A stretch of 11,648 nucleotides of DNA from a bacterium (GTDB taxonomy: Bacteria; 4484-113; JALSIF01), in assembly GCA_026981635.1 (NCBI GenBank), contig JALSIF010000263.1:1-11648 (forward strand), in the 5' to 3' direction. How positions within the stretch are numbered: the first letter of the stretch is position 1; every line of letters begins with the position of its first letter. Of the stretch, positions 4,217 through 11,648 are shown piece after piece. A model generated the notes under the pieces. That model worked only from the letters and a program-made list of their open reading frames with translations, was not told where the DNA came from and did not search any database. The translations under genes were made by a program, and so were the position numbers.

Positions 4217-5109
4217 CACGCCGCCTCCATCACCGCCAGCTCCTCCAGGTCGGAAAGACTAGCCTGCAACCTATCCAGTAGATCGGAGAGATAGCCCTCG
4301 TCTTTACCAATAAGCTCCAGCACCCCGGGGTCAAGGCCGCCGCTGGTTCCGTCCACCGCCATGCCGATGCCCAGGGCCAGGGAGGCGTGGTTGGCCAGGT
4401 GGACCACCGCCGCCATCAGACGAAACTCCTCCGGTGCCTCCAGCGGCCGGTAGAGGTGGAGGATGGCCTGGGAAAAGACCTCGGGCAGGTTCCACTGCTC
4501 CACCACCTTGGCCCCCAGCTCGGCGTGGTCAAAGCCCAGCACCTCCCGCTCCGCCTCGGCGAAGGTCTTGCCATCCTCCACCACCTTGGTGTAGATCTGC
4601 TCAAAGGCCTCAATCACATAGGTCTCCAGCACCGTCTTGCCGATGTCGTGGAGCAGACCGCAGACGAAGGCCTCCTCCGGGTCTAGCCGCCTGATGTCAC
4701 TGGCCACCGTGCGCGCCGCCACCCCGGTGGCCAGGGCGTGGCGCCACAGATCCCCTCGCTTCATCCCGTAGCCCGGAGTGGGCTTGTCGTAATAGTCATA
4801 GAGAGCGATGGCGTAGATCAGCCCCTTGAGGGTCCTCAGCCCCAGAAGAACGATGGCGTCCATCACCGTGCTGATGCGGCGGGGAAAGCCATAGAAGGCC
4901 GAGTTGGCAAGTTTCAGGATGCGGGCGGTGAGTGCCTGGTCGGTGCTTAGCACCTTGGCCAGCTCACGGATCTCCACCTCCGGGTCCTGGATCATGGGCA
5001 CCACCCGGTGCACCACACCGGGCAGGGGAGGGAGTTCCTTGACCTTGGCAAGGATCTCCTCCATGGTGGGCAGCTCCTGGTCCTTCCTCCTCTCGTCATC
5101 CCCAGCCAT
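4216..5109 (-). CDS. HDOD-domain signalling protein, first gene of the flagellar operon
   Basis: HDOD domains are HD-related helical output domains, usually without demonstrated enzyme activity. They are often tied to motility, chemotaxis or cyclic-di-GMP signalling. The 297-residue product shows family hallmarks: LPPLPGVVHRVVPMI near residue 26, DQALTARILKLANSAFYGFPRRISTV near 57-82, then LLGLRTLKGL. Unlike many members it keeps an HD dyad (LLHDIGK, 154-155) together with other candidate metal-site histidines (H124, H195, H218), so residual hydrolase activity cannot be dismissed. It has a strong SD (GGAGGA) before the ATG and its own promoter. It overlaps flgB by one base, so its synthesis is tied to rod assembly genes. 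The exact role in motility is not evident from sequence. Confidence 0.88.
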   Translation of the reverse strand: MAGDDERRKDQELPTMEEILAKVKELPPLPGVVHRVVPMIQDPEVEIRELAKVLSTDQALTARILKLANSAFYGFPRRISTVMDAIVLLGLRTLKGLIYAIALYDYYDKPTPGYGMKRGDLWRHALATGVAARTVASDIRRLDPEEAFVCGLLHDIGKTVLETYVIEAFEQIYTKVVEDGKTFAEAEREVLGFDHAELGAKVVEQWNLPEVFSQAILHLYRPLEAPEEFRLMAAVVHLANHASLALGIGMAVDGTSGGLDPGVLELIGKDEGYLSDLLDRLQASLSDLEELAVMEAA

Positions 5110-5135
5110 AGCTTCCTCCTGATCTCTGGTGTGAA

Positions 5136-5165
5136 ATTCTACCGTCTAATATCCCGTATAGTCAT
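5136..5165 (-). promoter_or_regulatory. Promoter of the HDOD-flagellar operon
   Basis: On the minus strand ATGACT (5165-5160), an 18-nt spacer and TAGAAT (5141-5136) make a sigma70-like -35/-10 pair. The predicted start of transcription is near 5129, leaving a leader of about 20 nt that contains the SD of the HDOD gene. The block immediately upstream (5166-5195) is AT-rich and fits an UP element. No sigma28 or sigma54 pattern stands out here, so the operon looks served by the housekeeping factor. Confidence 0.62.
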
Positions 5166-5190
5166 TATTCATAATAATAATAATAAACAA
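5166..5190. repeat. AT-rich block with five ATA triplets
   Basis: Positions 5171-5185 are five tandem ATA triplets (read TAT on the minus strand) inside an almost pure A/T stretch, in sharp contrast to the GC-rich surroundings. It abuts the -35 box of the flagellar promoter, where an UP element for the RNA polymerase alpha subunit would bind. Confidence 0.6.
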
Positions 5191-5481
5191 CTAACACAGA
5201 AGAATTAGCCTTCCTATCAGATGCAGTTCAGTCACTTATCTGTCCATTCCTTGCAACTGAGACGCCTAAGCGTCTTAGAAGCCCCAGACCCAGTCCGGCA
5301 AGGCCGTCCGGGAGGCGCCCCTAATCTTAGGGCTAGAAGCAGCTCCGTCAAGTGCTGATAAGGGTTCCCAGCGAGTTGTCCACAACAGTCCACCGCCTCA
5401 GTGCCCACCAGAGCGCAAGGAAAAATCTAAAAATCTTTTTCACTAACATAACCAAACAGGGACTAACAGCTTATCCCCCTC
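5191..5481. other. Intergenic region with short inverted repeats, no gene seen
   Basis: This is the 3' flank of the dehydratase gene and the far upstream of the flagellar promoter. I see no convincing reading frame. It holds a hairpin AGACGC-CTAA-GCGTCT (5260-5275) and an inverted repeat CCCTAA-TC-TTAGGG (5319-5332). A TTGTCCACA nonamer at 5376-5384 lies within GTTGTCCACAAC. Near 5420-5440 there is an A/T stretch with a direct repeat of AAAAATCT. On the minus strand, the direction of the dehydratase transcript, that last part reads AAAGATTTTTAGATTTTT. It could help transcription end, but no stable stem precedes it. Confidence 0.5.
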
Positions 5482-6601: not shown

Positions 6602-7552
6602 GTGAGTGAGCCCAGCCCCAAGCGCCGCTACACCGTCGCCCTGATCCAGTTCTCCCCCCGCCTGGGGGCAGTGGACGACAACCTCTCCACCATTGAGGAC
6701 TACCTCCGCCAGGCCCGTGAGCGGGGCGCAGATTTGGCCGTCTTCCCTGAGCTTGCCCTCTCCGGCTACCTGGTCCAGGACCTGGCCGGCGAGGTATACC
6801 TCACCGAGCTCCCCCGCCCGGAGCGCAACCGCCGCTGGTGGGACCGGCTGCTAGACCTCTCCCGCACCCTCCCCCTGATAGCCGGCTTGCCCTACCGCGA
6901 CGAGAGCGGCCTCTACATCGCCTCCGCCCTGCTTGCGGAGGGCAAGCTCCTTGCCCTCCACCGCAAGGTATATCTCCCCACCTACGGCCTCTTCCAGGAC
7001 CAGCGCTTCTTTGACCGCGGCCAGCTCCCCACCCTGGCCGCCACCGGGGCCTTCGGCCGGCTGGGCCTGCTCATCTGCGAGGATGCCTGGCACCCCCTGC
7101 TGGTAAACGCCACCGCCCTGATGGGGGCCGAGGTGCTGGTCATCGTCTCCGCCTCTCCCGCCGGCGGCGCCGCCACCGAGGTGGCCTATTCTGCCGAGTG
7201 GTGGGCCACCTTCTGCTCCGTCTACGCCAAGCTCTTCGGCTGCTACGTCCTCTTTGCCAACCGCACCGGCAGCGAGGACGGGGTGATCTACTCCGGCTCC
7301 AGCCGGGTGGTGGACCCCTTCGGCCGGGTGGTGGTGGAGGCCGACGGCAAGGAGGGCAGACCCGCCCCCCTGGAGGACGGCATGCTCATCGCCGAGCTTG
7401 ACCTGGAGGAGGTCTTCCGCGCCCGCACCATCCTCCCCCTGATGAGTGACGAGGACCCCCGCCTGCTGAGGGAGATCTTTGACCGCCTGACCGCCGGCTG
7501 GCAGAGTTTGCCGCCGGCCGCCTCCGGCAAGGCCCAATCAGGTGGAAGCTGA
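6602..7552 (+). CDS. Carbon-nitrogen hydrolase (nitrilase superfamily), NAD synthetase glutaminase-like
   Basis: The 316-residue product is a stand-alone nitrilase-fold amidase. From the GTG at 6602 the Glu-Lys-Cys triad is seen at E50 (VFPELALSGY), K122 (HRKVYLPTYG) and C159 (LICEDAW). The FPELALSGY, LPTYGLFQDQRFF and LLICEDAW stretches resemble the glutaminase domain of glutamine-dependent NAD+ synthetase more than other branches. No synthetase domain follows, so the true amide substrate is unknown. An ATG at 6593 is in frame but lies inside the -10 box, so the GTG is preferred. The stop overlaps the next gene (mqnA-like) by 11 nt, so both are surely co-transcribed and a link to menaquinone synthesis or amide release is possible. 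Confidence 0.85.
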   Translation: MSEPSPKRRYTVALIQFSPRLGAVDDNLSTIEDYLRQARERGADLAVFPELALSGYLVQDLAGEVYLTELPRPERNRRWWDRLLDLSRTLPLIAGLPYRDESGLYIASALLAEGKLLALHRKVYLPTYGLFQDQRFFDRGQLPTLAATGAFGRLGLLICEDAWHPLLVNATALMGAEVLVIVSASPAGGAATEVAYSAEWWATFCSVYAKLFGCYVLFANRTGSEDGVIYSGSSRVVDPFGRVVVEADGKEGRPAPLEDGMLIAELDLEEVFRARTILPLMSDEDPRLLREIFDRLTAGWQSLPPAASGKAQSGGS

Positions 7553-8784: not shown

Positions 8785-8818
8785 CGTGCTCCTCCTCAGA
8801 AATAGTTAGTCAGAAGGT

Positions 8819-8858
8819 AGTTTATCAGTCCCATCCCCCTGATGGGGAATGATAAGCT
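8819..8858. promoter_or_regulatory. Dyad-symmetric divergent promoter of osmC and HAD gene
   Basis: AGTTTATCAGTCCCATC (8819-8835) and GATGGGGAATGATAAGCT (8841-8858) are near-perfect inverted arms around a 5-nt centre, with one inserted base and two mismatches. Each arm ends in an extended -10 box pointing outward: TGATAAACT on the minus strand toward osmC, and TGATAAGCT on the plus strand toward the HAD gene. With normal spacing the -35 region of each promoter falls in the other arm. The element can therefore act as an operator, a shared promoter, or both. Confidence 0.55.
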
Positions 8859-8867
8859 CCCCCTTCC

Positions 8868-10081: not shown

Positions 10082-11146
10082 ATGGAGCTTCCGGTGGACC
10101 TTCGCTCTGACACGGTAACCAAGCCCTCCCCCGAGATGCGCCGCTGGATGTATGAGGCCGAGGTGGGCGACGACATCTACGGCGAGGACCCCACGGTGAA
10201 CCTCCTTCAGGAGGAGGTGGCCGAGCTTTTGGGGACCGAGGCCGCCCTCTTCGTCCCCAGCGGCACCATGGCCAACCAGGTCGCCCTCAGGGTCCACACC
10301 CAGCCGGGCGACGAGGTCATCGCCCACCGGGACAGCCACTGCATCCACTACGAGACCGGCGCCCTGGCCGCCCTTTCCGGCTGCCAGGTGGCCGCCCTGG
10401 AGGGGGAGGGGGGGCTGTTTACCCCCGACGATGTGAGGCAGGCGGTGCGTCCCAGCCGCCCCTACCTGCCCCGCAGCACCCTGGTGGTGATGGAAAACAC
10501 CCACAACCGGGGCGGCGGCACCATCTGGCCCCCCGAGCAGTTTGCCGCCGTCGCCGAGGTGGCCCACGAGCTGGGCCTTATGGTCCACCTGGACGGCGCC
10601 CGCCTGATGAACGCCGCGGTGGCCCTGGGCGTGCCCCCCACCACCTGGACTAGGCATACCGATTCGGTGGCCATCTGTTTCAGCAAGGGCCTTGGCGCTC
10701 CCATCGGCTCGGCGGTGGCAGGTTCTAGAGACTTCATTGAGGAGGCCCTCAGGGTGCGCAAGATGTTTGGCGGTGCCATGCGCCAGGTGGGGGTGATCGC
10801 CGCCGCCGCCCGCTATGCCCTGAGGCACAACGTTTCGCGCCTGGCCGAGGACCACCGGCGGGCAAGGGAACTGGCCCGGGGACTTGGGGAGATTGACCAG
10901 GAGCTTGGCGGTGGCCTCCTTTCAGTACCCGAGCCCCAGACCAACATCGTCATGGTGGACCTCTCCCCGCAGCGCCTGCCCGGGGCGGAGGAGCTAGCCC
11001 AGCGCCTCAGGTCGGAGCAGGTGCTGGTGGGCGCCTTTGGCCCCCACCGCATCCGCATGGTGGTCCACCTTGACCTCACCGACCAGTCGGTGGCCTTTGC
11101 CCTTGAGGTGTGGCACAGGGTGCTGGGAGAGGTGAGAAAAGGTTAG
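10082..11146 (+). CDS. ltaE: Low-specificity L-threonine aldolase
   Basis: This PLP enzyme (fold type I, beta-eliminating lyase family) splits L-threonine or L-allo-threonine to glycine and acetaldehyde in the cytoplasm. From the ATG at 10082 the product is 354 residues, the family size. It has the N-terminal [38 protein letters not shown] (cofactor phosphate region) and [11 protein letters not shown]171 and R174 lie in [12 protein letters not shown]. The Schiff-base lysine K202 is in [12 protein letters not shown]. An upstream in-frame ATG (10040) would add 14 residues unlike the family and would begin before the -10 box, so 10082 is preferred. It is divergent from the phosphoribosyltransferase gene. 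Ten nt after its stop a 6-bp hairpin may mark the transcript end. Confidence 0.93.
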
Positions 11147-11155
11147 TTCGCAAGT

Positions 11156-11171
11156 GGCTAAATAGTTAGCC
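11156..11171. terminator. Hairpin just downstream of the threonine aldolase stop
   Basis: GGCTAA-ATAG-TTAGCC is a perfect 6-bp stem with a tetraloop, 10 nt beyond the TAG. No U tract follows at once (GGGAAG), so termination is possible but not convincing. Confidence 0.3.
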
Positions 11172-11294
11172 GGGAAGTAGAAATTATTTGTGCCCCAGTG
11201 GGGTATTAACAGGTGCGTGGTCCTCTCTCTCTGCCGCCCCCACGGCTGGACCACGACTTCCTCCGACAGCCCCGGTAACCCCGGGGCTGAAATT

Positions 11295-11312
11295 GCGTCC
11301 CCGCGGGGACGC
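11295..11312. repeat. Perfect 18-bp palindrome
   Basis: GCGTCCCCGCGGGGACGC equals its own reverse complement. It is the centre of the hairpin series between the threonine aldolase gene and the next gene, and could be a protein-binding site or the stem of an RNA hairpin. Confidence 0.75.
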
Positions 11313-11435
11313 CCTTCCTTCCTCCCCACGGTCCCCACCCTGGGGACCGTGCTCCTAACCAGTCTTAGACTTAACCCACCATGGGCCGATCTGTCAAGTC
11401 TCCCCCTCTCCCCAAGGGAGGGGCGGCCCTCTGGT

Positions 11436-11451
11436 GGGGCTAGAATGCCCC
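11436..11451 (+). promoter_or_regulatory. -10 box inside inverted repeat, leaderless start of the last gene
   Basis: TAGAAT (11441-11446) is framed by GGGGC (11436-11440) and GCCCC (11447-11451), a perfect 5-bp inverted repeat with the -10 box as its loop. The ATG follows 6 nt after the box, without an SD. GCTAGAATGCC is also found before the nitrilase gene (6587-6597). Confidence 0.55.
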
Positions 11452-11452
11452 C

Positions 11453-11648
11453 ATGCCGGCTGAGGTTTCCCCGCTCATCTCGGTGGAGTTTTCCCACCGC
11501 GGAACCACCCGCCGGATCACCGCTCCCCTGCCCCCTTTCCTCACCGCCGACTTCCTCCTCCGCCAGTGGGAGCTGGTCGGGGAGGTAGCCCCGGCCGAGG
11601 GGAGGGTGCTGGTGGTGGGGATGGGGGGGAGCATCCTGCCCACCTCCG
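11453..11648 (+). CDS. Start of a gene with GMGGS motif, possibly a sugar-phosphate isomerase (partial)
   Basis: Only the first 65 residues are in the window and the frame stays open to the edge. A beta-strand followed by a glycine turn (RVLVVGMGGSILPTS) lies at about residues 51-65, preceded by a helical FLLRQWELVGEV segment. GMGGS after a hydrophobic strand at this distance from the N-terminus resembles the opening of SIS-domain bifunctional phosphoglucose/phosphomannose isomerases. Other nucleotide-binding folds have similar turns, so the family call is weak. The start is supported by the leaderless -10 pattern. It lies 306 nt after the threonine aldolase gene on the same strand. Confidence 0.5.
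   Translation, partial: MPAEVSPLISVEFSHRGTTRRITAPLPPFLTADFLLRQWELVGEVAPAEGRVLVVGMGGSILPTS

What the first reader, a model, noticed from the sequence alone, without database searches (positions are those of the whole stretch)
11147..11452. Dense array of perfect GC-rich hairpins between the threonine aldolase gene and the next gene
Four near-consecutive exact inverted repeats of 8, 9, 9 and 10 bp (11216-11351) are separated by linkers of 5-14 nt and flanked by smaller stems. The first has an inner stem. A 306-nt gap carrying this many perfect stems is hard to explain by GC content alone, and no U tracts follow, so they are not ordinary intrinsic terminators. It could be an undescribed structured RNA, a multi-hairpin 3' UTR protecting the upstream mRNA, or an array of operator palindromes.
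Basis: partly seen in the sequence, partly recalled or inferred. Interest (0 to 1): 0.66.

Follow-up and report, generated by a model that had tools for sequence, protein, structure and literature searches.

The report
Four-hairpin cluster downstream of aldolase gene
Between two genes of an unnamed, GC-rich bacterium lies a real and non-random row of four strong hairpins without the usual U-tails, which most likely marks the end of the upstream gene's messenger RNA and may protect it, although no relatives exist in the searched collections to prove any function.

Summary
Four perfect stems of 8, 9, 9 and 11 bp (not 10) lie at 11216-11351 with linkers of 11, 5 and 14 nt. None of 2000 dinucleotide shuffles gives four such stems (mean 0.2), and the gap folds at z -5.7 (+) and -4.6 (-). 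Among 193 intergenic gaps sampled from 41% of the genome, no other has more than two. There is no Rfam match, no copy in the genome, and no match in the nine other genomes of the phylum, in phages or in plasmids. The genome is the only one of its family held, and in six class-level relatives the aldolase gene has other neighbours, so covariation cannot be tested. The linkers are 82% pyrimidine with one G in 49 nt, and the C-over-G excess after this stop ranks sixth of 537 gene ends. Best reading: the transcript end of the aldolase mRNA, a cluster of U-less hairpins that stops polymerase (possibly with Rho at the C-rich linkers) and shields the 3' end. That kind is already described, so interest is modest. 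A leader RNA or an independent small RNA is not excluded. A CsrB-like sponge, an operator array and a dispersed repeat are not supported.

The parts
10082..11146 (+). Upstream gene: low-specificity threonine aldolase type (beta-eliminating lyase family)
   Evidence: Pfam PF01212 E 8.3e-102
11147..11215 (+). A+T-richer spacer after the stop codon (45% GC) with two small stems, GGCTAA/TTAGCC at about 11156-11171 and GCCCC/GGGGT
   Evidence: Composition; fold
11216..11255 (+). H1: 8-bp stem CGTGGTCC/GGACCACG with (TC)n bulge and inner GCCG/CGGC stem
   Evidence: -17.2 kcal/mol alone
11267..11289 (+). H2: 9-bp stem CAGCCCCGG/CCGGGGCTG, loop TAACC
   Evidence: -18.5 kcal/mol
11295..11312 (+). H3: perfect 18-bp palindrome GCGTCCCCGCGGGGACGC (7-bp hairpin with 4-nt loop as RNA)
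   Evidence: -13.4 kcal/mol
11313..11326 (+). All-pyrimidine linker CCTTCCTTCCTCCC between H3 and H4; with the other linkers, 40 of 49 nt pyrimidine and one G
11327..11351 (+). H4: 11-bp stem CACGGTCCCCA/TGGGGACCGTG, loop CCC
   Evidence: -20.7 kcal/mol
11375..11439 (+). H5: longer-range stem CCCACCA.../...TGGTGGG enclosing a CCCTCTCC-type hairpin, just upstream of the next start codon; part of the MFE fold, weaker evidence than H1-H4
11453..11648 (+). Start of the next gene (65 aa before the contig ends; ends in VLVVGMGGSILPTS, unidentified)

Best explanation
The array is the transcript-end module of the aldolase mRNA on the + strand. About 70 nt after the stop codon the nascent RNA folds four consecutive strong hairpins separated by nearly G-free, C/U-rich linkers. 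The hairpins make RNA polymerase pause, and the complex is released without a U-tract, either by the hairpins acting as a cluster or by Rho loading on the exposed C/U-rich linkers. The remaining GC hairpins then block 3'-to-5' exonucleases and stabilise the aldolase mRNA. Shown: the stems exist, exceed chance, lie at a gene's 3' end, lack U-tails, and have C-rich, G-poor linkers. Inferred: transcription of the + strand, termination, Rho involvement and protection.
For: Stems far beyond shuffles and fold z -5.7, stronger on the + strand. The cluster starts 70 nt after a stop codon, and PMC8355165 reports 98% of its correctly identified termination sites within 80 nt. In this genome stems of at least 8 bp are commoner in convergent gaps (3.7 per kb, 16 gaps) than in divergent ones (1.05 per kb, 61 gaps), so strong hairpins look mainly like a gene-end feature here. 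The C-over-G excess in the 200 nt after this stop ranks 6th of 537 gene ends. Linkers are 40/49 pyrimidine with one G. Rho is found in all nine other genomes of the phylum. Published work describes U-less hairpin clusters with spacing under 15 nt as terminators (PMC8355165) and U-less I-shaped terminators as the majority of strong transcript ends in a high-GC bacterium (PMC12403871).
Against: This genome also has ordinary U-tailed terminators: 13 of the 28 hairpins listed near stop codons have at least 5 T in the next 10 nt, so it does not need a U-less type. Rho was not found in this MAG, although the MAG is only 85% complete. Accessible YC dinucleotides are no more than expected from composition. 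The linker pyrimidine test was made after seeing the sequence. There are no transcript data and no homologues.
Confidence: 0.47

Rival explanations
1. The hairpins are the structured 5' leader of the next gene, or a readthrough-control element between two genes of one operon, tuning its translation or transcription.
For: Genes are codirectional; H5 (11375-11439) lies immediately upstream of the ATG and pairs GGTGGGG, the nearest purine-rich stretch to the start, with 11375-11381.
Against: No Rfam match; no relatives with the element; H4 ends 101 nt before the start codon; independent local hairpins show no obvious alternative terminator/antiterminator pairing.
Confidence: 0.2
2. An independent small RNA, about 150-250 nt, with four to five hairpins, made from either strand. 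On + its CCTTCCTTCCTCCC and CTTCCTCC linkers could pair with Shine-Dalgarno sequences; on - a perfect TTGACA at about 11398-11393 could serve as a -35 box.
For: Strong fold on both strands; A+T-rich 69 nt before H1 that could hold a promoter; TTGACA on - followed after 17 nt by TTAAGT (sequence).
Against: Promoter scan finds nothing on either strand; TTAAGT matches only 3 of 6 of the -10 consensus; no U-tailed terminator bounds either strand; no homologue.
Confidence: 0.18
3. A CsrB/RsmZ-like sponge RNA on the - strand with GGA motifs in the linkers between hairpins.
For: A CsrA-domain protein is encoded in the genome; - strand linkers read GGAGGAAGGAAGG and CGGAGGAAG.
Against: GGA total 9 against 6.7 in shuffles; accessible GGA 2 against 1.8 expected; no GGA in any hairpin loop, where the high-affinity sites of CsrB-type RNAs lie (established knowledge).
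Confidence: 0.04
4. DNA-level function or debris: operator palindromes, or copies of a dispersed palindromic repeat.
For: H3 and H4 share GTCCCC/GGGGAC; the genome does hold a dispersed palindromic repeat of the form CCCCTCCCtGCttGCGGGGAGGGG on a few contigs.
Against: H1-H4 have different sequences and no second copy in the genome; resemblance of H5 to the dispersed repeat is at shuffle level (16% of shuffles as good); single-strand linkers are strand-biased.
Confidence: 0.08

Closest known systems
Hairpin-cluster intrinsic terminators (Gupta and Pal 2021, PMC8355165)
   Same: Several hairpins, each less than 15 nt from the next, close downstream of a stop codon, no poly-U needed
   Different: Stems here are perfect and unusually strong (four of 8-11 bp) while that work counts stems from 2 bp; termination not measured here
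I-shaped (U-less) and tandem terminators of high-GC bacteria (class names as cited in PMC8355165 and PMC12403871)
   Same: GC-rich stems at a gene end without a U-tract
   Different: Four in a row; the same genome also uses U-tailed terminators
Rho-dependent terminators (rut sites)
   Same: C-rich, G-poor segment after the stop codon, Rho present in the phylum
   Different: The C-rich stretch is interrupted by strong hairpins; Rho gene not seen in this incomplete MAG
CsrB/RsmZ sponge RNAs
   Same: Array of hairpins with GGA-containing linkers on the - strand
   Different: No GGA in loops, no enrichment of accessible GGA

Membership tests
Hairpin-cluster intrinsic terminator | Two or more stable hairpins separated by less than 15 nt | tested here: met
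   Linkers 11, 5, 14 nt
Hairpin-cluster intrinsic terminator | Cluster begins within about 80 nt of a stop codon | tested here: met
   H1 starts 70 nt after the aldolase stop; criterion
Hairpin-cluster intrinsic terminator | Transcript level falls at the cluster | not testable with these tools
   No RNA data
Canonical L-shaped intrinsic terminator | U-tract directly after the stem | tested here: not met
   2-4 T in the 10 nt after each stem on +, at most 3 on -; scan finds none in the gap
Rho-dependent terminator | C-over-G bubble downstream of the stop | tested here: met
   Rank 6 of 537 gene ends
Rho-dependent terminator | Rho encoded in the genome | tested here: inconclusive
   Not found in the 85% complete MAG; found in 9 of 9 phylum relatives
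CsrB/RsmZ sponge RNA | Excess of accessible GGA, several in hairpin loops | tested here: not met
   2 accessible against 1.8 expected; none in loops
Known Rfam RNA family | Score at or above gathering threshold | tested here: not met
   No match in window; best sub-threshold match far below cut-off
Dispersed palindromic repeat of this genome | Sequence similarity to other copies | tested here: not met
   No copies of H1-H4; H5 alignment reached by 16% of shuffles

The most novel reading that the evidence does not exclude
A lineage-specific, undescribed regulatory RNA of about 150-250 nt with four consecutive strong hairpins and pyrimidine-rich linkers that expose anti-Shine-Dalgarno-like sequence, acting in trans or on the next gene.
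Probability: 0.1. Interest if true: 0.6.

Novelty: new member of a known kind. Interest (0 to 1): 0.3.

Why it matters
If it ends transcripts, it is a clean natural example of a strong multi-hairpin terminator without U-tracts in a poorly known phylum, useful for asking whether hairpin clusters alone, or with Rho at the linkers, release polymerase. If it is a separate RNA, it would be a new structured RNA.

Tried and rejected
Rfam at gathering and relaxed thresholds: nothing credible. tRNA/tmRNA: none. Promoter and U-tailed terminator scan: none in the gap. blastn in own genome and 60 relatives: only self-complementary and chance-level hits. A covariance model built from the single sequence (A1/R1), searched over the phylum's 10 genomes: best hit outside G000 E 0.56. 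Phage and plasmid records and the viral contigs: no match. Aldolase loci of six same-class genomes: the gene is followed closely by other genes, so no orthologous gap exists. ORFs across the gap (132 aa +, 167 aa -): no Pfam match, and a dicodon gene caller made no gene there. Dispersed-repeat origin tested and not supported. The next gene could not be identified from its first 65 residues.

Full report
What is there. The window is one complete contig (C263) of a 1.745 Mb MAG, 85% complete, the only genome of its family held and one of ten in its phylum. The gap 11147-11452 lies between a threonine aldolase type gene (PF01212) and the start of an unidentified + strand gene cut off by the contig end. 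It holds four perfect stems, H1-H4, at 11216-11351, of 8, 9, 9 and 11 bp, spaced 11, 5 and 14 nt. Two smaller stems precede them, and a longer-range stem, H5, follows just before the next ATG.

Is it more than chance? Yes. In 2000 dinucleotide-preserving shuffles none had four stems of at least 8 bp (mean 0.2, maximum 2), and none had three stems of at least 9 bp. The gap folds 5.7 SD better than shuffles on + and 4.6 on -. Among 193 gaps from 120 sampled contigs plus the window (715 kb, 41% of the genome) it has the most such stems (4; next 2) and ranks fifth in fold z-score. The only other place with three stems within 150 nt is a run of dispersed palindromic repeats on contig C297.

Anatomy. 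The stems are symmetric by nature, but the linkers are not. On the + strand they read TCTCTCTCT, ACTTCCTCCGA, AAATT, CCTTCCTTCCTCCC and CTCCTAACCA: 40 of 49 pyrimidine and one G (tested after the pattern was seen). The C-over-G excess in the 200 nt after the aldolase stop ranks sixth of 537 gene ends in the sample. No U-tract follows any stem on either strand.

What it most likely does. In this genome strong perfect stems are about three times denser in convergent gaps than in divergent ones (only 16 convergent gaps), which suggests they are mainly a gene-end feature. The cluster starts 70 nt after a stop codon. Hairpin clusters with spacing under 15 nt and no poly-U have been proposed as intrinsic terminators across 13 genomes with RNA-seq support (PMC8355165), and U-less terminators are the majority of strong transcript ends in the high-GC Methylosinus sporium (PMC12403871). 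I therefore read the array as the transcript end of the aldolase mRNA: pausing and release at the cluster, possibly with Rho on the C-rich linkers, followed by protection of the 3' end by the remaining hairpins. Every functional step is inferred. Against it, this genome also uses U-tailed terminators (13 of 28 hairpins near stops), and Rho was not found in this incomplete MAG although all nine phylum relatives have it.

Rivals. A leader element of the next gene, or an independent RNA, cannot be excluded. A - strand TTGACA at about 11398-11393 is followed after 17 nt by TTAAGT, a weak -10. A CsrB-like sponge is unlikely, since accessible GGA motifs are at chance, although a CsrA-domain protein exists. 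An operator array or dispersed repeat is unlikely, since the stems differ from each other and have no copies.

Limits. No homologous gap could be found: blastn and a single-sequence covariance model find nothing in the phylum, phages, plasmids and viral contigs give nothing, and the aldolase gene has other neighbours in six class-level relatives. Intergenic statistics rest on a simple dicodon gene caller and on 41% of the genome; that caller starts the next gene at 11483 instead of 11453, which does not affect H1-H4.

Verdict. A real, unusually dense hairpin cluster, most likely a strong example of a described kind of U-less transcript end; no evidence for something categorically new.

Noticed in passing
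L253 (G000:C297) 720-960, 2306-2520, 4910-5240, 6690-6870: Dense clusters of a dispersed palindromic repeat (CCCCTCCCtGCttGCGGGGAGGGGgctGGGGgGTGGGG); about 20 copies, concentrated on contigs C29, C133, C158, C297 and C316. The uneven spread could mean a repeat-rich region or mis-binned contigs.
   Followed up: partly
L264 1297-1812 (G000:C68): A 171-aa ORF holds two CsrA-like stretches in tandem (a weak first and a full second one), an unusual CsrA architecture in a flagellated organism.
   Followed up: no
G000 whole genome: No Rho RNA-binding domain found although all nine other genomes of the phylum have it; probably MAG incompleteness.
   Followed up: partly
window 8785-8867: Divergent gap between an OsmC-like and a HAD hydrolase gene carries a strong nested hairpin (AGTTTATCAGTCCCATCCCCCTGATGGGGAATGATAAGCT), possible operator or leader.
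   Followed up: no
window 11367-11401: Inverted repeat AGACTTAAC-N17-GTCAAGTCT (8 of 9 pairs) with a - strand TTGACA overlapping one arm; could be an operator or promoter of the - strand or of the next gene.
   Followed up: no
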